Shown: positions 30,824-39,012 of the stretch, piece after piece
Position numbering within the stretch: the stretch's first letter is position 1
Layout: each line of letters starts with the position of its first letter
DNA from: an uncultured Bacteroidota bacterium
Lineage (GTDB): Bacteria > Bacteroidota > Bacteroidia > Chitinophagales > Chitinophagaceae
Assembly: GCA_903905065.1 (NCBI GenBank)
Contig: CAIVEW010000093.1
Coordinates: 1-39,142, forward strand
DNA: 39,142 bases
Direction of reading: 5' to 3'
The notes under the pieces: model-generated
Seen by the model: only the letters and a program-made list of their open reading frames with translations
Databases searched by the model: none
What the model was told of the DNA's origin: nothing
Position numbers and translations under genes: made by a program

Positions 30824-31675
30824 TCAAATAAAAATCCTCCCTGCCATTTCCCATGCTTCGGAGAAGGCCGCTTTGTTTAGATTTAGCGGGACGTTATTGC
30901 GCTCGCACCAGTCTATGATGTTCTCGGTGGCAATGTTGCCTACAAGTTCATCTTCGGCCATCGGGCAACCACCTATGCCTTTGATTGCACTATCGTAGCG
31001 CAGGCAGCCGGCATTGTAAGCAGCCTGTATCTTCTCCTCCCATTTATCAGGGGCAGAGTGGAAATGTGCACCTATGTTTATGTCTTTAAATTCAGGAATG
31101 AGATGGTTGTATATGTAGCTGATGTTCACAGGATCGGCTACACCTACCGTATCTGCCATGGCAATGGTTTTTACACCAAGCGTTGTGAGTTTTCTAACCC
31201 AGTTAATTGCCACTTCCGCATTATAATCGTCGCCATACGGATTGCCAAAACCCATAGAAATATAGATGACCAGCTCTTTATTGCGCTGCACACATAACTT
31301 TTGCATTTCTTCTACCTGGGTCAACGACTGTGCTATCGTCTTGTTGGTATTGCGCAGTTGGAATGTTTCGGAAATCGAAAAAGGAAAGCCAAGGTAGGTG
31401 ATCTCGTCATATTGCACCGCTTCTTCGGCACCTCGGGTGTTCGCAATTATCGCGAGCAGTTTTGTGGTGGTGCTGCTCATATCCAGCCTGGGTATGACGT
31501 CTTTTGTATCGGCAAGCTGAGGAATAGCTTTTGCAGATACAAAAGAACCGAAATCCAACACATCGAAACCTACCTTCAATAGTTTGTTCAGGTATGCTAT
31601 TTTATCCGCAGTAGGAATGAAATGAGCCCAGCCCTGCATGGCATCGCGTGGACACTCTATTAGTTCAAAAGCCAA
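30824..31675 (-). CDS. Hydroxymethylglutaryl-CoA lyase
   Basis: Cleaves HMG-CoA to acetyl-CoA and acetoacetate, in leucine breakdown. The N-terminus has IECPRDAMQG, the Bacteroidota form of the EVGPRDGLQ metal/substrate motif, then GFDVLDFGSFVS, and the C-terminal GIGGCPMAEDELVGN loop with the catalytic Cys. Length 283 is normal. The frame opens at TTG 31675; a stop lies two codons upstream, and the next ATG (residue 13) would remove the essential RD motif, so TTG is probably the real start. Known relatives are annotated as MvaB-like. Confidence 0.92.
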   Translation of the reverse strand: MAFELIECPRDAMQGWAHFIPTADKIAYLNKLLKVGFDVLDFGSFVSAKAIPQLADTKDVIPRLDMSSTTTKLLAIIANTRGAEEAVQYDEITYLGFPFSISETFQLRNTNKTIAQSLTQVEEMQKLCVQRNKELVIYISMGFGNPYGDDYNAEVAINWVRKLTTLGVKTIAMADTVGVADPVNISYIYNHLIPEFKDINIGAHFHSAPDKWEEKIQAAYNAGCLRYDSAIKGIGGCPMAEDELVGNIATENIIDWCERNNVPLNLNKAAFSEAWEMAGRIFI

Positions 31676-31767: not shown

Positions 31768-32163
31768 CTATGCCAACAATACTGCGAGGTTATTGCTTGT
31801 GAGGGGTTTATTCAGGAACTGCTTTACAGTAGCGTAGGTGTGCACCCTCACCAGGTCATTTTCGTTGATCGACGATGAAATGATGTAAATGGTGTAGTTA
31901 TCAGTGACTTCCTTAGGAAGTTTCTCAAAAGCCTCCACAAACTCAAAACCATTCATCACCGGCATCTGGATATCCACCAGCATTATGGTGCGCTGGTGCT
32001 CCCCGGCGGGAATAGCTTTAATGTATTCCAGGGCCTCCGTGGCCTGCAGAAACGACTTTATCGACTCGCTGATCCCGGTATTCCGGATGATCTTTTCCGC
32101 GATAAAGCAGTCCAGCTTACTGTCGTCAACTACTATAAAATTCAGCTTCTTAGTTTGTACCAT
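31768..32163 (-). CDS. Single-domain response regulator
   Basis: A lone CheY-like receiver of 131 residues. The acidic pocket is Asp13-Asp14, the phosphorylation site Asp64 in LVDIQMP, with the Ser of ISSS and the Lys of NKPL completing the active site. It has no output domain, so it would act by protein-protein contact or as a phosphate relay. Its ATG overlaps the end of the hybrid kinase gene by 14 nt. It is the last gene of the five-gene operon. Confidence 0.9.
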   Translation of the reverse strand: MVQTKKLNFIVVDDSKLDCFIAEKIIRNTGISESIKSFLQATEALEYIKAIPAGEHQRTIMLVDIQMPVMNGFEFVEAFEKLPKEVTDNYTIYIISSSINENDLVRVHTYATVKQFLNKPLTSNNLAVLLA

Positions 32164-33256
32164 GTGCCTTGCCCGGAATAATTACTTTAAAAGTTGTTCC
32201 TTCATTTACTACTGATGCCACTTCTATTGTTCCATTTAATTTTGTAAGCGCATCCTTTACATTATAAAGTCCTAATCCAGATCCTGTTTCCTCGGACGTC
32301 GCCCGGTAGAACATGGTGAAGATATTATTTATATGGCTGTCATGTATGCCTATGCCGTTATCTTTTACGGTAATGGTGGCAACATTGTCTGCAACAACAA
32401 TACTTACATCCACATATTTGTCCGGTGCATCTTTTCTCTGGTAATTGAACGCATTAGATAATAAGTTGTTCATTACCATCTTTATCGATATTTCATCCGA
32501 CAGGAATTCATCATTTTGAACTACATTCGAAATGAACCGGATGTTATCCATCCTTCCGGCTATCCTGAAGAGTGCTGCTATATCCTTTACCAGGTTATTA
32601 AAGTCGATCACTTCAAACTGCAACAACCCTCTCTTCAACTTATAGTACTCGTGTGTATTCTTGATATACTCATCCAGTTTGTGAATTGCATCTTCCATCA
32701 TTTCCAGGATGTCCCTGAGTTCTGCAGGGTCTTCCATGTTTTTTGCCAGATCGAGCGCGCCAAGAATGCTCAGCAACGGGCCTCTTACATCATGGGTAAC
32801 ACTATAAGCGAATTTTCCCAACTCATCATATGCAGATTGCAATTCTTTATTTTTAGCAACCAGCATAGTGTTAGTCAGATAGAATTTGCTAGCCTCTTCG
32901 ATCGCCGACCGGATATCTGAGTCGGTCCAGGGTTTCTTAATGTACCTGAAGATATGGCCTCTGTTGACCGCATCTATCACTGACTCAATATCGGTATAGC
33001 CAGTAATGAGCATGCGCACCGGATTCTCATAGGTATCACGCATTTCTTCAAAAAACTGTACTCCTGTCTTGTCTGGCATACGTTGGTCACACAATATCAC
33101 ACTGATATCCGGGTGACCTTCCAAATGCGCATAAGCCTGTGGTATATTTGACGCGATCAATACAGTGTAGTCGAACCTGAACGTGGCTTTAAATCCGTTC
33201 AGATTGTTCTGTTCGTCGTCAATGTATAGAACTTTTATTTTTTTAGGTGTGTCCAA
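32150..33256 (-). CDS. Receiver-histidine kinase hybrid
   Basis: A 368-residue cytosolic protein with an N-terminal receiver (Asp57 in CDQRMP, Asp13-Asp14, ITGYTD, KKPW), then HisKA with His155 in SVTHDVRGPLLSI, and an HATPase domain (NNLLSNAFNY, DNGIGI, GSGLGLYNV). The receiver lies before the kinase, which suggests that phosphorylation of Asp57 tunes the kinase. The frame opens at TTG 33256; no in-frame ATG is near, so TTG is the probable start. It sits 8 nt after the 7TM-DISM kinase gene. The receiver is clearly paralogous to the divergent lone receiver at 38545. Confidence 0.88.
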   Translation of the reverse strand: MDTPKKIKVLYIDDEQNNLNGFKATFRFDYTVLIASNIPQAYAHLEGHPDISVILCDQRMPDKTGVQFFEEMRDTYENPVRMLITGYTDIESVIDAVNRGHIFRYIKKPWTDSDIRSAIEEASKFYLTNTMLVAKNKELQSAYDELGKFAYSVTHDVRGPLLSILGALDLAKNMEDPAELRDILEMMEDAIHKLDEYIKNTHEYYKLKRGLLQFEVIDFNNLVKDIAALFRIAGRMDNIRFISNVVQNDEFLSDEISIKMVMNNLLSNAFNYQRKDAPDKYVDVSIVVADNVATITVKDNGIGIHDSHINNIFTMFYRATSEETGSGLGLYNVKDALTKLNGTIEVASVVNEGTTFKVIIPGKAHGTN

Positions 33257-33264
33257 TTCTGTTT

Positions 33265-35403
33265 CTATTTCTGAATTAATGGCAAAATAAGTACAAATTC
33301 TGTTCCTTTTCCAATTTCTGAATTAACTTGTATCTGTCCGTTATGCTTATTTATGGTATTATAGGCGATTGAGAGTCCTAAGCCAGTACCCTCGCCCACG
33401 TCTTTCGTTGTGAAGAATGGCTCAAAAAGTTTCTTTTTCGTGTTTTCATCCATTCCTGTGCCATTGTCAGCAATTTTAATAAAAACACTGGTGTCATCAA
33501 AACTAGTGGAGATGGTAAGCAATCCTCCATCTGCATCCCCAAATTTTTTTCTCACGGCATATATCCCGTTTGAAATGATATTTAAAAATACCTGGTTCAG
33601 CTTGCCAGGATAACACTCTATAAGCGGAAGATCGGCATAATGTTTTTCGATCTTAATAATGTTGTTCAAAAGATTATTGGTAATGACCAATGTAGACTCC
33701 AGTCCTTCATTGATGTTTGCCTTTTTCAGGTCATCCTCGTCCAGGCGGGAGAATATGCGCAGCCCTTTCACTATTTCCGCTGTTCTTGATGCACCTTCGC
33801 CTATCCCGCTTAGCAGCTGATCAATTTCCTCCTTAAGGTATTCATAGTCTATCTCTTCCTTGTACGCGTTTATCTTTTTCTGCTTTTCTGCTACGGAAGA
33901 ATCAACATTGGCTATTTGTTCAATGGCGTCTACAGCATCCAGTAGTATGCGAACGTCCCTGTTTAGCGGCTTCACGTTGGAAGTCACAAAGTTGATCGGG
34001 TTGTTGATCTCATGGGCGATACCGGCGGTAAGCTGACCGAGAGATGCCATTTTCTCAGACTCTACAAGTTGTGTTTCCGCATCTTTCAGTTCTTTCATGG
34101 CCTTGTTCAGTCCATCGTTTGAGACTTGCAGTTCGTGTGTGCGTTCGTCAACTTTAGCCTCCAGAATTACGTTCTGTTCGCGCACGATTCGTTCATTCTC
34201 CTGCAGGGCGTCCATTGCCTGCGCCTGCGATTGTTCTTTTTCTTTCTTATAAGTGTTGATCTTATCCGCAAGTGCGAACGACAGTGTTACGGCCTCGAAC
34301 GCTGAACCAAACAGCAGGGCAGAACTGGTCAGGTTGTTATAAGGAAGAACCCCAAAATCTTTCAATACATAGACAACGACACAAACAATAAATACTGACC
34401 ACGCAATGAGAAAGAACCGGGCGGAACGCGAGCCCTTCATCAATATACGTATCGCCATGACCAGTACGTATACGGAACTAACCATTGCCGCGCCAAGAAT
34501 GATCTGGTAGCTTTGGTTATAATGTCGCGTAAGGGCTAGTACGCAGGCCGCAGCATATATTACCCAGAAGGCGTAGGATATTTTGTGTAAGCCCGGAGTA
34601 TTTGTTCTGGATGACAGGAAGTTCTTAGAAAACTCGATCGCTGCCAGTCCTATCGCGGCGCTCGATAGATAAATGCACATATCCACCACGTCGGGGTTGT
34701 GCGGGAAAAGCATCCGGAATGTGTATCCTTCAAGGGTGGTTTGCGTGATCAGGTTAACGGCAAGGTAAAGTACATAATAAATGTAGCTTCTATCTTTTAC
34801 CGTGGTATAGATAAACAAGTTGTAAAAGATCATAACGAAAATGATCCCCAGGTAGATGCCAAATAAAATGTCTTTTGTTAGGGCATTTTCAAAGGTCTGT
34901 ATTTCACTGCCCACATAAATCGGCACCATTAGCTGCTTACCACTTTTTAAATACAAATAAAGGGTGAGGGAATCGTTCTGCTTAATGCTTATCGGATAGA
35001 TAAACGTCTGGTTCTTTACTACCCTGTCATTAAAAGGCCTTCTGTCGCCACTATGGTTCTCAACGACAAGCGAGTCGTGGTGGAATTCATAAAAGTCAAC
35101 ATAATCGATGATAGGCTGCGCCAATTGCATGGCCAGATTTTCATCAGGTGTTTTATTTACTACAGTTATCCTTACCCAAAATGAGTTCGGCGTTATGGAT
35201 AGATTGGGTACCTGGCTGGTGGATAGCTTAAAATCAGGTGATTTCATTGCTGCCTTCAACGAAATATTCGAATTGCTGTCAGTGAGAATTTCCACTTTGT
35301 TCCCAACGGTGCCGAATAATCCCGAGTATGTGACGATTTGCTGCGAAAAAGCAAGTTGTTGAAAAGATAACAGGAGTAAAAGTGTGAGTACCTTCCGAAT
35401 CAT
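33265..35403 (-). CDS. 7TM-DISM sensor histidine kinase
   Basis: A 712-residue membrane sensor: signal peptide 1-20, an extracellular 7TMR-DISMED2-like domain (~25-170), seven TM segments (~178-385), a coiled coil (~390-450), HisKA with His464 in GQLTAGIAHEINNPINF, and an HATPase domain (NIISNGIYA, DNGTGM, FEPFFTTK, GTGLGLSI). DISMED2 domains are thought to bind carbohydrate-like or other small ligands (established for the family only in outline). It lies 15 nt after the GNAT-like gene, which suggests that what that enzyme makes may be what this protein senses. Confidence 0.92.
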   Translation of the reverse strand: MIRKVLTLLLLLSFQQLAFSQQIVTYSGLFGTVGNKVEILTDSNSNISLKAAMKSPDFKLSTSQVPNLSITPNSFWVRITVVNKTPDENLAMQLAQPIIDYVDFYEFHHDSLVVENHSGDRRPFNDRVVKNQTFIYPISIKQNDSLTLYLYLKSGKQLMVPIYVGSEIQTFENALTKDILFGIYLGIIFVMIFYNLFIYTTVKDRSYIYYVLYLAVNLITQTTLEGYTFRMLFPHNPDVVDMCIYLSSAAIGLAAIEFSKNFLSSRTNTPGLHKISYAFWVIYAAACVLALTRHYNQSYQIILGAAMVSSVYVLVMAIRILMKGSRSARFFLIAWSVFIVCVVVYVLKDFGVLPYNNLTSSALLFGSAFEAVTLSFALADKINTYKKEKEQSQAQAMDALQENERIVREQNVILEAKVDERTHELQVSNDGLNKAMKELKDAETQLVESEKMASLGQLTAGIAHEINNPINFVTSNVKPLNRDVRILLDAVDAIEQIANVDSSVAEKQKKINAYKEEIDYEYLKEEIDQLLSGIGEGASRTAEIVKGLRIFSRLDEDDLKKANINEGLESTLVITNNLLNNIIKIEKHYADLPLIECYPGKLNQVFLNIISNGIYAVRKKFGDADGGLLTISTSFDDTSVFIKIADNGTGMDENTKKKLFEPFFTTKDVGEGTGLGLSIAYNTINKHNGQIQVNSEIGKGTEFVLILPLIQK

Positions 35404-35418
35404 TTTTTTTCTGTGATC

Positions 35419-36102
35419 TTAAAAATTAAGGTTATACGATATTTCAATACTTCCTTTAGGGCCATGCTCCATCCTGGTAATATTCGGGTTGTCGCGCAAT
35501 TCAAAAACAAGGTCTCGCTCTGACGGCAAAGCACCGGGCAAATTCCTGGTGTCTTTAATGATAATACTGGTGGCCACAAGATCCAGTTTTGGATAAATAA
35601 AAGTGCCCTCGTTGCCAATGGAAGTTTCCTTTTCAAAGCCCTTCTCCACGCTGATCTGCAGCGTATGAGGGGCGCATAATGCAAATAGGGTAGGCAGGTT
35701 CAGTTGATTGGTAACACTGATACCCACTCTCATCAGAAAGTAGCTTCCCAAACCATAACCTGCCACTGACTTGGCGTTCCAAAGGCCGCAGAGTTCGCCG
35801 GTACCTATAGGAATATATTTTTTGATCAGGTCATAGACTTTCGTGTCCACAATAGATATCGCATCTTCCATGGGAAGATGGGTAATGCCATCGGCAATGT
35901 GTATCCTGATCCCGCCCACCGTTTCTCCCGTCTCCTTATTTTCTGCGATCATTACATAAGCCGCCGGATTATAAAACCAGTCTGTGCTGGAAGATGTGAC
36001 TTTACTCACGCCATAATCACGCAAAACATTAGCATGACCTTCGGCGAAGGATTTGCACGATTCCGGATCTTCAACAGCCCTGAAAGCCCTGATTCTTATC
36101 AT
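35419..36102 (-). CDS. GNAT-fold acyltransferase-like protein, LuxI-reminiscent
   Basis: A 227-residue cytosolic protein. An early strand ends in YVMIAENKETGETVGGIRIH, the R/Q-like GNAT core, followed by THLPMEDAI; a second core strand reads GELCGLWNAKS, then a long helix (GLGSYFLMRVGISVTNQL), PTLFALCAPHTLQI and GFEKETSIGNEGTF. The layout, with a xGGxRL-type turn, an E-L-x-x-L strand and a Gly-Phe step, recalls N-acyltransferases related to LuxI autoinducer synthases, but the typical LuxI charged residues are not clearly there. ATG start; 7 nt after the E1-nitroreductase gene. Role unknown; acyl transfer is the best guess. Confidence 0.7.
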   Translation of the reverse strand: MIRIRAFRAVEDPESCKSFAEGHANVLRDYGVSKVTSSSTDWFYNPAAYVMIAENKETGETVGGIRIHIADGITHLPMEDAISIVDTKVYDLIKKYIPIGTGELCGLWNAKSVAGYGLGSYFLMRVGISVTNQLNLPTLFALCAPHTLQISVEKGFEKETSIGNEGTFIYPKLDLVATSIIIKDTRNLPGALPSERDLVFELRDNPNITRMEHGPKGSIEISYNLNF

Positions 36103-36109
36103 TTATCTC

Positions 36110-38410
36110 CTAATAAAATACTTCTTCTTTTGGTTTTCTTAACGATCTAACTCCAATATCATCGGCAATGGCGAGTTTCATCAAAAATACCTCGGAATAA
36201 CCGGGCATTTTATCCAAATCCTGTTTAAAAATACTAATGAATTTCTCCCGGAGGGTTTTTAATTTATCCACAACGTGTGGAGGAATATCAACTCCGTTGC
36301 CATGTATCAGCCTGTTAAAAAAGAAAGCGGATGAAAGAACCGGGTGCACCGATATCCCATTGGCGTTTGCATATATCCATGCGCGTTCCACCGCCCTGCC
36401 AGCCGCCAGGAGTTCTTTACTGTTAAACTCCGGTACAGCAAAGATCAGTATAGAAGACGCGGCTTCCACGGCCTTCGTAGATAATTTCATAAACCCATCG
36501 CCTTTATCCCACCTGGATAATAACTCTACTGCACTCCAGTCACGGGCTACCTGGAACCCGGCCAGTTCACTTTGTGTGAGATCGACCGCGGCCAGTTCAA
36601 TGCCATCGTGGTGTTCCATTGCATGTTCCTTATTCCACCTTATTTCACTGTAAAACTCTTCATGCCCTTGCTCATGCAGCAATCTCACTTTATCACATGC
36701 AGCTATTATTTTCCCTAATTCGTTTAGCTTCTGATCGTCATCTGTATAGAATATTTTTATCCCCCGTTCTTCGCCTATTGCTGCCTTCATTCCTGAATAA
36801 AAACTGTCTGCCAATTTTTGCCTGGCCCCCAATTTCCTGTTCGTATAACGTGTATACATGTTTTGGGCTAGCGACATGGCCAGGGCATCTGACGTCTGAG
36901 CTGCCGGCCGGAAACGGATGGCAGCAACTATTTTGGAGCTTTCACCGGCTGGAAACAAGGTTACAGTATCCTCCAGTCCTATCGCCGCTGCCTGCAGGTG
37001 TACATTTTCGATGCCTGTGCCTAAGCCCATAAAAGAACCCATAGATGCATAATCGCCCCATGACCAGGATCTGTATTGGTCGTGAAACAGGAACAGCACG
37101 CCATTTCGGTACATCCATTTCCATGGCTGGTTATTGCCTGCGGACGGCGCGGCTACGGCTGCTTTGCTGATGTCAGATAGTTGCGCGTCAGTAAGCGGAT
37201 AGTCACCTGGTTTTCCTGCCTGGAAAAATTGTTCCACAGCCTGCTCCATGTATGCCTTATCAAGCGGTGTGTATGGGTTTACATAATTGGGCGCTTTTTT
37301 CTCTTTTGTATTTTTATCGGCAACGAGCTGATCGAGGTCAACGTAGTACCTGCCCGACTCGTGATACTGATCGAGCAATATTCTGCGGCAAACGTCGGTA
37401 GTTAGCGCGCCACCCAGTGTAACAGAGGATGCGAGCTGTGGCCATGTGTTTATTGACTGCTCCACTTCCATCATCGATGCTTTCAGCCGCGTGGAAATAG
37501 TTTCTGCACCAATCATTTTCAGAATGTATGGCACTTTCTCCTCGTTGGTCAGTCCCTTTATCTTGTCGGGGTCCAGGTCTCCGGCAAGCCCGTGAAATAT
37601 AGGCCGGTTTGGTTCCAGGTCAAAGCGCTCCACGTCGAGCATACCACGGTCATTGGTATCCATTACCACCGGTACTCCAAACTCACGGGCCTTGAAGCGG
37701 CTGACTATTTTTATGTCCAACCCATCGCAAACCTCAACCAATATGTCCAGTTTGCCATCCTTTATGAAGAAGTCATTGATATTCTGATCCGTCAGGCCAT
37801 CATTAAATATTTTTACATCAAGGAATGGGTCTATTTCAGCAATCTCGCGGGCAGCTATTATGGTTTTTAGCAAACCGAGGTTGTGAACACCGGTACGCAA
37901 ACGATTCAGGTTGCTTAATTCTGCGGTGTCAAAATCGGCCAGCCTTATCTGCCCGCAGGTGCGCTCCATCGCCAGGGTAAGCGCTATCGATTGCCCAACG
38001 GAGAGCCCAATAATACCTATCTTTTTTTTAGCCAGCAGCGCCTGCTCTTCAACGGTTATTTTATACTTGTTCCTATTAGTCCTGATGTCCACAAACTCCT
38101 GCTCATCCAGAACGTGTACCAATCGCTGGGACCACGGATAATAAACCCATACGCCATACTCTTCCATTGGGCAGTCGCCAACGTGCTGCGGTATTAATAC
38201 CTTGTAATCAGCGTCTTTGAGTTTTACACTTGGATGCCTGCTTTTTACCAGTTCTTTGAGTTGGTCGTATATTTCATCATAAAGAAATATGTTAGTTGAT
38301 TGAAGCAGGTCGTCAAAAGATTTCTTGTCTTCGGTATTAGAGAGCCGATAGAAAGCAGGTTTGTAACTTTCATTTAGTTTTTTAGTAGCATGCACCTTTT
38401 CGTTTAACAT
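36110..38410 (-). CDS. E1/ThiF-nitroreductase fusion (Rv1355c/MoeY-like)
   Basis: A 766-residue two-enzyme fusion of unknown product. After ~120 residues unlike anything I know, an E1-like adenylation domain (~125-370) shows the nucleotide loop IGIIGLSVG (131-139), Asp159/Asp161 and NLNR (167-170), a downstream Lys and a CDGLD segment. No CxxC zinc site is seen. A flavin nitroreductase domain (~405-735) begins with APSAGNNQPWKW (421-432), and has YTNRK and a GRAVERAWIYANANGISVHP helix. The pairing resembles the E1 and dehydrogenase partners of thiazole/oxazole peptide synthesis, but without a YcaO. ATG 38410 is preferred to the TTG at 38446. Confidence 0.85.
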   Translation of the reverse strand: MLNEKVHATKKLNESYKPAFYRLSNTEDKKSFDDLLQSTNIFLYDEIYDQLKELVKSRHPSVKLKDADYKVLIPQHVGDCPMEEYGVWVYYPWSQRLVHVLDEQEFVDIRTNRNKYKITVEEQALLAKKKIGIIGLSVGQSIALTLAMERTCGQIRLADFDTAELSNLNRLRTGVHNLGLLKTIIAAREIAEIDPFLDVKIFNDGLTDQNINDFFIKDGKLDILVEVCDGLDIKIVSRFKAREFGVPVVMDTNDRGMLDVERFDLEPNRPIFHGLAGDLDPDKIKGLTNEEKVPYILKMIGAETISTRLKASMMEVEQSINTWPQLASSVTLGGALTTDVCRRILLDQYHESGRYYVDLDQLVADKNTKEKKAPNYVNPYTPLDKAYMEQAVEQFFQAGKPGDYPLTDAQLSDISKAAVAAPSAGNNQPWKWMYRNGVLFLFHDQYRSWSWGDYASMGSFMGLGTGIENVHLQAAAIGLEDTVTLFPAGESSKIVAAIRFRPAAQTSDALAMSLAQNMYTRYTNRKLGARQKLADSFYSGMKAAIGEERGIKIFYTDDDQKLNELGKIIAACDKVRLLHEQGHEEFYSEIRWNKEHAMEHHDGIELAAVDLTQSELAGFQVARDWSAVELLSRWDKGDGFMKLSTKAVEAASSILIFAVPEFNSKELLAAGRAVERAWIYANANGISVHPVLSSAFFFNRLIHGNGVDIPPHVVDKLKTLREKFISIFKQDLDKMPGYSEVFLMKLAIADDIGVRSLRKPKEEVFY

Positions 38411-38435
38411 AGCATTAAAATTTTTTTGCGCCGAA

Positions 38436-38448
38436 GATTGGGCCAATC
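38436..38448. promoter_or_regulatory. 13-bp palindrome upstream of the E1-nitroreductase operon
   Basis: GATTGGGCCAATC has two 6-bp arms around one base. It lies between the candidate promoter box (38469-38462) and the preferred ATG at 38410, a fitting place for an operator. The alternative TTG start falls inside it, a further reason to doubt that start. Confidence 0.45.
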
Positions 38449-38461
38449 GTAAACAGGTGGT

Positions 38462-38494
38462 TAAATATACTGCAATTACTATTTATTTTCTCAA
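38462..38494 (-). promoter_or_regulatory. Candidate promoter of the signalling operon
   Basis: Minus-strand TTG (38494-38492) is followed after 22 nt by TATATTTA (38469-38462), one base short of TAnnTTTG. The divergent gap to the receiver at 38545 is very AT-rich; on the plus strand I see only a near-match, TATCTTG. Confidence 0.3.
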
Positions 38495-38544
38495 TATTTT
38501 GTTATCTTGCGAATAATATTAATCGGCATAATATTATAACAAAC

Positions 38545-39012
38545 ATGGCAAAACAGGATGGGATCAATATATTATATGTTGATGATGAGTTAAATAATCT
38601 TGTTTCTTTTAAGGCAGTATTTCGGATAAAGTATAATGTAATTACTGCCCTCAGTGGAGAAGAGGCCGTTCAGATACTTAGGAAGAACAACATCAATATT
38701 ATTATCACCGACCAGCGGATGCCGCAGATGACGGGAGTGGAATTCCTCGAATCCATACTGGACGAATTTCCAGACCCCATAAGGATATTGCTTACCGGCT
38801 ATGCCGATATGAATGCGGTAATAGACGCTGTAAATAAAGGCAAGATATTTCATTACCTGAGCAAACCCTGGAATGAGGAAGAACTGGACCTGACGATCAA
38901 CAGGGCATTTGACGTTTATAAACAGAAAATGGACGAAAAAGAGATGACCTACAAGCTCAGCCTCTCCAACGACCAGCTTGAATTTCTTTTGCGCCAAAAA
39001 CTGCTCTCATAA
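38545..39012 (+). CDS. Single-domain response regulator, divergent from the operon
   Basis: A 155-residue receiver with Asp13-Asp14, phospho-acceptor Asp56 in TDQRMP, LTGYAD and SKPW, followed by a ~35-residue charged helix (KQKMDEKEMTYKLSLSNDQ) that may dimerise. No output domain. It aligns along its whole receiver with that of the hybrid kinase (shared VDDE/IDDE-NNL, DQRMP, TGV-F-E, VIDAVN-G-IF-Y, KPW). It is divergent from the E1-nitroreductase operon with a 134-bp gap to that operon's preferred start, suggesting shared regulation. Confidence 0.9.
   Translation: MAKQDGINILYVDDELNNLVSFKAVFRIKYNVITALSGEEAVQILRKNNINIIITDQRMPQMTGVEFLESILDEFPDPIRILLTGYADMNAVIDAVNKGKIFHYLSKPWNEEELDLTINRAFDVYKQKMDEKEMTYKLSLSNDQLEFLLRQKLLS

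What the first reader, a model, noticed from the sequence alone, without database searches (positions are those of the whole stretch)
31768..39012. E1-nitroreductase fusion and GNAT enzyme wired into a private phosphorelay
Five minus-strand genes (38410 to 31768) are packed with gaps of 7, 15 and 8 nt and a 14-nt overlap, so they form one operon: E1/ThiF-nitroreductase, GNAT-like protein, 7TM-DISM kinase, receiver-kinase hybrid, lone receiver. A sixth gene, a lone receiver paralogous to the hybrid's receiver, is divergent. Two putative biosynthetic enzymes followed by a membrane sensor and three receivers suggests a system that makes a small molecule and senses it, or makes it on command. The fused enzyme resembles Rv1355c (MoeY) of M. 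tuberculosis, whose neighbourhood, as I recall it, also contains c-di-GMP turnover genes. I know of no described function for this set.
Basis: partly seen in the sequence, partly recalled or inferred. Interest (0 to 1): 0.8.

Follow-up and report, generated by a model that had tools for sequence, protein, structure and literature searches.

The report
Bacteroidota lipid-signal maker with own receptor
This operon encodes enzymes predicted to make a fatty-acyl amino-acid signal, side by side with a membrane sensor kinase that likely detects it; between close relatives the finishing-enzyme domain and the sensor domain differ together while most of the operon stays the same, as would be expected of a private signal-receptor pair.

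Summary
The operon is real and the coordinates are right. The E1-nitroreductase fusion is a full-length Rv1355c-family protein. That family was characterised in 2025 as TrzS: a ThiF cyclase fused to a flavin oxidase that makes N-acyl oxazolones. The "GNAT-like" gene has the fold of FeeM and acyl-homoserine-lactone synthases: the predicted N-acyl amino-acid synthase (NAT). The chemistry is known; the context is new. In 96 of 101 intact loci (16 of 17 taxonomic families sampled) NAT and TrzS sit with a 7TM-DISM histidine kinase; 85 of 101 also have a receiver-kinase and a lone receiver. The fusion is the replaceable part: some cassettes have the ThiF half only, an FAD oxidase, a methyltransferase or no finishing enzyme I could name, and 7 of 7 examined without TrzS keep NAT plus kinase. 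Best evidence: against two genus-mates, two DNA islands differ almost beyond alignment, the oxidase half of TrzS and the sensor half of the kinase; NAT between them, the kinase half and the receivers stay 79-97% identical. Within the genus, sensor identity follows the enzymes, not the attached kinase half. I read this as a synthase-receptor signalling cassette with agr-like specificity groups (likely, untested). Against: class-wide, oxidase presence does not track the sensor, and no ligand has been measured.

The parts
38545..39012 (+). Divergent lone receiver (REC1), with a conserved C-terminal tail N-x-Q-L-E-F-x-L-R-Q-x-L-L-S
   Evidence: Response_reg 70.5 bits; receiver residues D13, D14, D56, T84, K107 at 96% or more in 106 rows, window included; tail F147 and R150 in all 106 rows, Q151 99%; present in 89 of 101 intact loci: divergent upstream in 82, opposite strand downstream in 5, same strand in 2
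38411..38544 (.). 134-bp divergent intergenic region
   Evidence: sigma-70-type scan of the whole operon no better than shuffles
36110..38410 (-). TrzS-type fusion: ThiF/E1 cyclase + flavin-dependent oxidase (ORF extends to a TTG at 38446)
   Evidence: NF005901 794.7 bits over cut-off 476; Acg 2ymv E 7.7e-10 over residues 418-704; adenylation residues D171, D173, N181, R182, K194, D241 kept at 95% or more in fusions and in short ThiF forms and in four actinobacterial homologues
36110..37390 (-). Variable island 1: oxidase (FDO) half of TrzS
   Evidence: 37-51% DNA identity to L126/L128 against about 63-89% over most of the rest; protein 30-32%
35419..36102 (-). NAT: predicted N-acyl amino-acid synthase (FeeM / acyl-homoserine-lactone synthase fold)
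33265..35403 (-). 7TM-DISM sensor histidine kinase
   Evidence: 7TMR-DISM_7TM 171.8 bits, DISMED2 96.7, HATPase_c 75.9; all three families in 45 of 45 cassette kinases, one per genus
34300..35420 (-). Variable island 2: sensor half (periplasmic DISMED2 + 7TM) of the kinase gene
   Evidence: 38-55% DNA identity to L126/L128 with the kinase half at about 63-87%; protein 23-24% periplasmic, 39-40% 7TM
32150..33256 (-). Receiver-histidine kinase hybrid (REC-HK)
   Evidence: Response_reg + HisKA + HATPase_c; in 92 of 101 intact loci; distances follow the DISM kinase half and REC1
31768..32163 (-). Second lone receiver (REC2), optional member
   Evidence: Response_reg 47.1 bits; found in 55 of 101 intact loci

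Best explanation
The operon is most likely a self-contained signalling cassette: its enzymes are predicted to make an N-acyl amino-acid signal, finished here as an N-acyl oxazolone, and the neighbouring 7TM-DISM histidine kinase likely senses that product and would pass phosphate to the receiver-kinase and the divergent receiver. Predicted steps: NAT acylates an amino acid (substrate unknown); the ThiF half of TrzS adenylates and cyclises it; the FDO half desaturates it; the product reaches the periplasm or membrane; the DISMED2/7TM half binds it; the kinase half starts a relay through REC-HK to REC1 and, where present, REC2; REC1 acts on an unknown partner, perhaps through its conserved C-terminal tail. 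Shown here: gene content, wide conservation of the cassette, interchange of the finishing enzyme around a constant NAT + kinase core, and paired divergence of finishing domain and sensor domain. Inferred: every reaction, ligand binding, phosphotransfer and cell-cell signalling.
For: TrzS homology to an enzyme shown to make tryptazolones (PMC12856293). NAT has the FeeM/AHL-synthase fold, as published for TyzA. NAT + DISM kinase in 96 of 101 intact loci, 16 of 17 families; all four partners in 85 of 101. All 30 TrzS-positive genomes of the family sample also have NAT; 15 more have NAT without a TrzS hit; 6 of these 15 plus G890 were examined and 7 of 7 keep the DISM kinase. Window against L126/L128: FDO 30-32% and sensor 23-40% identical, but NAT 87-89%, ThiF 75-83%, kinase half 79-93%, REC-HK 92-93%, REC1 92-97%; two separate DNA islands with NAT between them unreplaced. 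Own genus, 20 fusion loci: sensor identity against FDO rho 0.56, NAT 0.47, ThiF 0.41, own kinase half -0.09; partial Mantel p 0.0002 for each enzyme. Tailoring state changes 6 times on the sensor tree, 9 on NAT, 11 on kinase (43 loci of the family, own genus thinned; quick trees). Sensors of the two FAD-oxidase cassettes are sisters (SH-aLRT 99) although their kinase halves are 50% alike and one has its own genus's kind of kinase half.
Against: No ligand, product or phosphotransfer was measured. Over 91 loci, presence or absence of FDO changes as often on the sensor tree as on the kinase tree (14 and 14). With an rpoB control in 21 genera, ThiF-sensor is not significant (0.17, p 0.17) while ThiF follows the kinase half (0.46, p 0.002); NAT-sensor is 0.31, p 0.012 before correction for 15 pairs. 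Outside the own genus (51 loci) the sensor also correlates with its own kinase half (0.44), and FDO adds little once NAT and ThiF are allowed for (0.14). L147 has no FDO but its sensor sits among sensors of fusion loci. TrzS copies also exist without NAT or kinase (4 of 101 intact loci), and none of 5 plasmid loci outside Bacteroidota (of 31 matching records) has a gene named as a histidine kinase within 6 kb. Published tryptazolones are enriched in the cell pellet, awkward for a secreted signal, though their acyl-tryptophan precursors are mainly in the supernatant. No output regulator was seen in the window's cassette.
Confidence: 0.6

Rival explanations
1. Made on command: the kinase senses an outside cue (a sugar, ion or stress) and the relay controls synthesis of an oxazolone lipid used for defence or stress; the product is not the ligand.
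For: Sub-inhibitory antibiotics induce oxazolones in some proteobacteria, and a link to stress is proposed (PMC12856293). Tryptazolones are enriched in cells. FDO presence does not track the sensor class-wide.
Against: Does not predict that the sensor half differs together with FDO or NAT while the kinase half and receivers stay. The relay is kept with cassettes that have only NAT or a different finishing enzyme. No DNA-binding regulator lies in the window's cassette.
Confidence: 0.26
2. Paired divergence is only recombination: the FDO-NAT-sensor stretch is a contiguous exchange hotspot, and the correlation reflects physical linkage, not ligand matching.
For: FDO, NAT and the sensor half are neighbours in most listed loci, so one exchange could carry all three.
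Against: In window against L126/L128 the NAT gene between the two islands is not replaced (70-80% DNA identity over most of the gene; 87-89% protein). The sensor is fused to the kinase half yet is not correlated with it in the genus (-0.09). The FAD-oxidase sensors pair up across genera while their NATs do not.
Confidence: 0.11
3. The finishing enzymes modify or inactivate an incoming signal, so the cassette detects and degrades neighbours' acyl amino acids.
For: ThiF and FDO act on a ready-made N-acyl amino acid; in either case enzyme and sensor would share a ligand.
Against: NAT has a synthase fold and is the constant partner, including cassettes with no finishing enzyme.
Confidence: 0.03

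Closest known systems
TrzAS of M. tuberculosis, M. smegmatis and R. jostii (Rv1356c-Rv1355c)
   Same: Full-length ThiF-FDO fusion of the same NCBIfam family, beside an acyltransferase
   Different: No kinase or receiver is mentioned in the paper's main text ('histidine kinase' 0, 'two-component' 0); Mtb has c-di-GMP genes next door. The authors do note the likeness of oxazolones to cell-cell signals
OxzAB (Pseudoalteromonas rubra) and TyzACB (M. tuberculosis)
   Same: Acyltransferase + ThiF + FDO making acyl-oxazolones; TyzA's model also resembles FeeM and BjaI
   Different: Tyrosine/phenylalanine products; no receptor kinase described in the passages read
FeeM and acyl-homoserine-lactone synthases (BjaI, LasI)
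   Different: About 10-16% identity; substrate untested; FeeM is not among the PDB sequence matches
agr of Staphylococcus aureus (specificity groups; recalled)
   Same: Signal-making part and sensor half vary together while kinase half and regulator stay constant
   Different: Peptide signal there, predicted acyl amino acid here; unrelated proteins
LuxM/LuxN, CqsA/CqsS, RpfF/RpfC (recalled)
   Same: Small-molecule synthase gene beside its multi-pass receptor kinase
   Different: Different synthase and sensor families
LadS/RetS-type 7TM-DISM kinases of Pseudomonas (recalled; search listing only)
   Same: DISMED2 + 7TM + histidine kinase layout
   Different: Not linked to a synthase gene, as far as I recall

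Membership tests
Rv1355c/TrzS family (ThiF-FDO oxazolone synthase) | Scores over the curated family cut-off along the whole length | tested here: met
   794.7 bits against 476, residues 21-776
Rv1355c/TrzS family (ThiF-FDO oxazolone synthase) | ThiF adenylation residues, including the aspartate mutated as D217 in TrzS of M. smegmatis | tested here: met
   D241 lies in the same C-D motif in four actinobacterial homologues and is kept at 95% or more in 89 fusion and 31 short-ThiF rows; that it equals D217 is inferred, as that sequence was not fetched
Rv1355c/TrzS family (ThiF-FDO oxazolone synthase) | FDO residues R540 and Q651 | tested here: inconclusive
   Numbering could not be fixed without the M. 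smegmatis sequence
Rv1355c/TrzS family (ThiF-FDO oxazolone synthase) | Makes an N-acyl oxazolone | not testable with these tools
   Needs LC-MS
N-acyl amino-acid synthases (FeeM-like) | FeeM/AHL-synthase fold | tested here: met
N-acyl amino-acid synthases (FeeM-like) | Sequence family match | tested here: not met
   No Pfam or NCBIfam hit; FeeM not among PDB sequence matches. 'Works like', not 'is', FeeM
7TM-DISM histidine kinases | DISMED2, 7TM and kinase domains | tested here: met
   DISMED2, 7TM and HATPase_c in 45 of 45 cassette kinases, HisKA in 44
Synthase-receptor autoinducer systems (LuxM/LuxN, agr type) | Synthase and receptor genes linked and conserved as a unit | tested here: met
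   96 of 101 intact loci; 7 of 7 examined NAT loci without TrzS
Synthase-receptor autoinducer systems (LuxM/LuxN, agr type) | Product-determining and sensing parts vary together | tested here: met
   Met at genus and family level; class-wide FDO-presence test negative and rpoB-controlled test mixed
Synthase-receptor autoinducer systems (LuxM/LuxN, agr type) | Product released, sensed and density-dependent | not testable with these tools
   Bench work needed

The most novel reading that the evidence does not exclude
A previously undescribed cell-cell signalling family of Bacteroidota: an acyl-homoserine-lactone-synthase-fold enzyme makes N-acyl amino acids, exchangeable finishing enzymes (ThiF-oxidase, ThiF, FAD oxidase, methyltransferase or none) turn them into private dialects such as oxazolones, and a 7TM-DISM kinase whose sensor half is exchanged in step with the enzymes reads them, giving agr-like specificity groups and a physiological role for oxazolone lipids.
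Probability: 0.48. Interest if true: 0.92.

Novelty: new variant of a known kind. Interest (0 to 1): 0.8.

Why it matters
The authors of the TrzAS paper call the physiological role of oxazolones a major unresolved question and note their likeness to cell-cell signals (PMC12856293). A receptor kinase kept beside the synthase in dozens of genera, with a sensor half that varies with the product-determining enzyme parts between close relatives, makes that question directly testable. I know of few signal-receptor pairs described for Bacteroidota (recalled); this one would be a self-contained, genome-searchable family with natural sensor-enzyme swaps for working out which product fits which receptor.

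Tried and rejected
Rejected: (1) fusion as molybdopterin enzyme 'MoeY': NF005901 and the TrzS paper explain it. (2) PorX as a conserved extra partner: a loose cluster suggested 11 genera, but a strict search found it in 5 loci, 3 genera. (3) HMG-CoA-lyase-like neighbour as a pathway member: 22 of 23 loci that have it are of the own genus. (4) Any other conserved neighbour in 52 loci, one per genus: the next best cluster spans 7 genera of one family. (5) FDO supplied elsewhere in ThiF-only genomes: 27 of 28 tested have no NF047509 match at E 1e-3 and the other has two of about 22 bits; 14 of 14 fusion genomes match. (6) Sigma-70 promoter scan: as shuffles. (7) First co-variation tests on patristic distances were mixed; the mosaic analysis was done after them, so it is partly a second look. 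Both are reported.

Limits: genomes come from overlapping samples of one phylum, class, family and genus with NF005901 or NAT as bait; 120 of 121 listed regions were fetched (G773 left out) and 19 of 120 loci were dropped from the 101-locus counts because contig ends lay too near. The 31 short-ThiF loci include L148, a fusion split over two frames, and L197 at a contig end. One search pairs are not independent: 6 of the 7 low-low pairs are one event. Trees are quick ones without bootstrap; one search warns of long rows (L133 on the NAT tree; L108 and L256 on the sensor tree).

Papers: PMC12856293, parts 1-4 of 7 plus a term search; PMC10404671, part 1 of 6 plus passages; PMC12479983, passages. 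Others: search listings only. De Rond et al. on OxzAB: not seen, cited through these. In the listings of the 10 paper searches I saw no title on this cassette; four listings were cut (20 of 27, 15 of 87, 10 of 75, 10 of 221), and the library holds only openly licensed papers.
Full report
WHAT IS THERE. The observation checks out to the base: five minus-strand genes with gaps of 7, 15 and 8 nt and a 14-nt overlap, and a divergent lone receiver. The window is a whole contig (39,142 bases) of a 4.68-Mb, 113-contig genome. Named relatives of the NAT protein are Chitinophagaceae, Pedobacter and Algoriphagus and the nearest named loci of the fusion are uncultured Bacteroidetes assemblies, so this is a Bacteroidota genome, probably of an uncultured bacterium (inferred).

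THE ENZYMES ARE OF A KNOWN KIND. The fusion scores 794.7 bits against the curated NCBIfam model NF005901 'Rv1355c family' (cut-off 476) over residues 21-776. Its oxidase half matches the flavoprotein Acg (2ymv, E 7.7e-10, residues 418-704). Rv1355c was characterised in December 2025 as TrzS (PMC12856293): the ThiF part cyclises N-acyl-tryptophan with ATP and the flavin-dependent oxidase (FDO) then desaturates it with O2, giving N-acyl tryptazolones; TrzA supplies the N-acyl amino acid. The adenylation residues are kept (D171, D173, N181, R182, K194, D241). Which amino acid and acyl chain are used here cannot be told from sequence. The authors themselves point out that oxazolones resemble cell-cell signals; they name no receptor in the parts I read.

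THE CASSETTE IS CONSERVED. NF005901 at E 1e-50 was found in 30 of 147 genomes of the family, 70 of 395 of the class, 10 of 395 of the phylum and 25 of 35 of the genus sample; the samples overlap. I fetched 120 of 121 listed regions (G773 left out) and searched them with the window's own proteins. Of 101 loci with enough flank (17 families, 54 genera), 97 have NAT, 96 the DISM kinase, 92 a receiver-kinase, 89 the lone receiver, 55 the second receiver; 96 have NAT + DISM kinase (16 families, 51 genera) and 85 all four. Outside the own family 44 of 54 have all four. The lone receiver is divergent upstream in 82, on the opposite strand downstream in 5 and on the same strand in 2. Pfam confirms DISMED2, 7TM-DISM and HATPase in 45 of 45 kinases, one per genus. 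The own genome has 2 PF07695 matches. Exceptions: four loci with TrzS but neither NAT nor kinase (L138, L148, L176, L187; neighbours) and one with NAT but no kinase (L203). Within the genus, 19 of 19 near-complete TrzS-positive genomes have the kinase; of 6 near-complete TrzS-negative ones, 4 lack it, one has a fragment at a contig end and one (G890) has it in a variant cassette.

THE FUSION IS THE REPLACEABLE PART. 31 of 120 loci encode only the ThiF part (about 375 aa; includes L148, split over two frames, and L197 at a contig end), and 27 of 28 such genomes tested have no FDO-type match at E 1e-3, against 14 of 14 fusion genomes with one. A NAT profile finds 45 of 144 family genomes: all 30 TrzS-positive ones and 15 more. 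Of the 15 I read 6, plus G890 from the genus. All 7 have the DISM kinase; 6 of 7 have the lone receiver (G890's NAT starts 379 bases from a contig end); 5 of 7 have a receiver-kinase, L258 has a receiver cut off by the end of the stretch, and L256 shows none. In place of TrzS there is an FAD_binding_4 oxidase (L253, L258), a methyltransferase (L256) or no finishing enzyme I could name (L257, L259, L260, L261; L260 has a 221-aa ORF between NAT and kinase that was not scanned). So the constant core is NAT + DISM kinase, nearly always with receiver-kinase and receiver.

THE KEY RESULT: FINISHING DOMAIN AND SENSOR DOMAIN DIFFER TOGETHER. Against genus-mates L126 and L128 the window is 92-97% identical in REC1, 75-83% in ThiF, 87-89% in NAT, 79-93% in the kinase half, 92-93% in REC-HK, 88-95% in REC2 and 90% in the next gene, but only 30-32% in FDO and 23-24% (periplasmic) and 39-40% (7TM) in the sensor half. 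Against L130 and L131 all segments are 83-100%. On DNA these are two islands, about 36110-37390 and 34300-35420, with the NAT gene between them at 70-80% over most of its length. One contiguous exchange does not explain this. Among 15 pairs of fusion loci with kinase halves at least 85% identical, 7 have FDO and sensor both under 60%, 7 both over 60%, 1 is mixed (L177/L179: 65 and 56); 6 of the first 7 are this one event and the seventh is another genus (L099/L102: FDO 31, sensor 32, NAT 63, kinase 86). In the own genus (20 fusion loci) sensor identity correlates with FDO 0.56, NAT 0.47 and ThiF 0.41 but with its own kinase half -0.09, REC-HK -0.13, REC1 -0.03; partial Mantel p is 0.0002 for each enzyme; removing four near-duplicates (16 loci) leaves 0.49-0.61, p 0.0006 or less. 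Outside the genus (51 loci) the partial values are 0.25-0.47 (p 0.001-0.002), but there the sensor also correlates with its own kinase half (0.44), and FDO adds 0.14 once NAT and ThiF are allowed for. In the family (43 loci: 27 fusion, 9 ThiF-only, 4 without, 2 FAD, 1 methyltransferase; own genus thinned) the kind of finishing enzyme changes 6 times on the sensor tree, 9 on NAT and 11 on the kinase tree; the four cassettes without a finishing enzyme have sensors in one clade (SH-aLRT 99), and the two FAD-oxidase cassettes have sister sensors (99) although G890's kinase half is 75% like its own genus and 50% like L258. L261, without TrzS, has a kinase half 81% like that of its genus-mate L111 with TrzS, but its nearest sensor is L260's.

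RESULTS AGAINST. Class-wide (91 loci) mere presence of FDO changes 14 times on the sensor tree and 14 on the kinase tree (13 and 15 on fuller FastTree sets). L147 of the own genus has no FDO yet its sensor groups with sensors of fusion loci. In 21 genera with an rpoB control, ThiF-sensor is 0.17 (p 0.17), ThiF-kinase half 0.46 (p 0.002) and NAT-sensor 0.31 (p 0.012, one of 15 pairs); that control covers only genomes whose full rpoB was cut out. In 45 genera without that control ThiF-sensor given kinase is 0.39 (0.21-0.55) and ThiF-kinase given sensor 0.14 (-0.02-0.30). The relay parts vary together in both tests (kinase half, REC-HK, REC1: 0.55-0.69; 0.74-0.83 given rpoB), which fits one phosphorelay. 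Tryptazolones are enriched in the cell pellet where measured, their acyl-tryptophan precursors in the supernatant.

READING. The pattern (synthase beside receptor kinase, exchangeable finishing enzyme, sensor half varying with the product-determining parts, constant kinase and receivers) is what agr specificity groups look like (recalled), and the synthase-beside-receptor layout is that of LuxM/LuxN or RpfF/RpfC (recalled). The REC1 tail (F147 and R150 in all 106 rows) is a candidate output contact.

OUTSIDE BACTEROIDOTA. Of 31 plasmid records with a match I looked at 5: Mycolicibacterium, Mycobacterium dioxanotrophicus, Rhodococcus (with a GGDEF gene nearby), Streptomyces (ThiF-only gene overlapping a GNAT gene; a 'sensor domain-containing protein' 5.4 kb away) and Nitratidesulfovibrio. 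None has a gene named as a histidine kinase within 6 kb, but these gene tables are incomplete. The receptor link was thus seen only in the Bacteroidota genomes sampled here.

Noticed in passing
G000:C4:63433-65473 (L254): A second 7TM-DISM kinase gene is split by a stop into two frames in the window's genome; intact paralogues 46-49% identical to the cassette kinase occur in several genus-mates. No NAT or TrzS beside it in L254 or in G889's copy, L255.
   Followed up: partly
window 30824-31675: An HMG-CoA-lyase-like gene follows the operon in many loci of the own genus (22 of the 23 loci that have it); it may only be a stable neighbour.
   Followed up: partly
L244:5929-7727: A Streptomyces plasmid carries a ThiF-only gene (47% identical to the window's ThiF half) overlapping a GNAT gene, with a MerR-type regulator upstream. 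That GNAT shows no BLAST similarity to NAT.
   Followed up: partly
L243:3916-8064: A Rhodococcus plasmid has a GGDEF gene near its Rv1355c-family gene, like the c-di-GMP genes beside trzAS in M. tuberculosis.
   Followed up: no
L175, L177, L179, L211 (family f8) and L097: A PorX-like gene (named by eye from its receiver and length; not scanned) lies about 2.3 kb upstream of TrzS in four loci of one family and 4.8 kb downstream in L097.
   Followed up: partly
G879 (L138, L143, L148): One genome holds three TrzS-type loci: one in a full cassette, one without NAT or kinase, one split over two frames near MauG- and MbnP-type genes.
   Followed up: partly
L256:6013-6594: Near the methyltransferase cassette lies an ORF with a LytTR DNA-binding domain, a possible output regulator in that one locus.
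   Followed up: no
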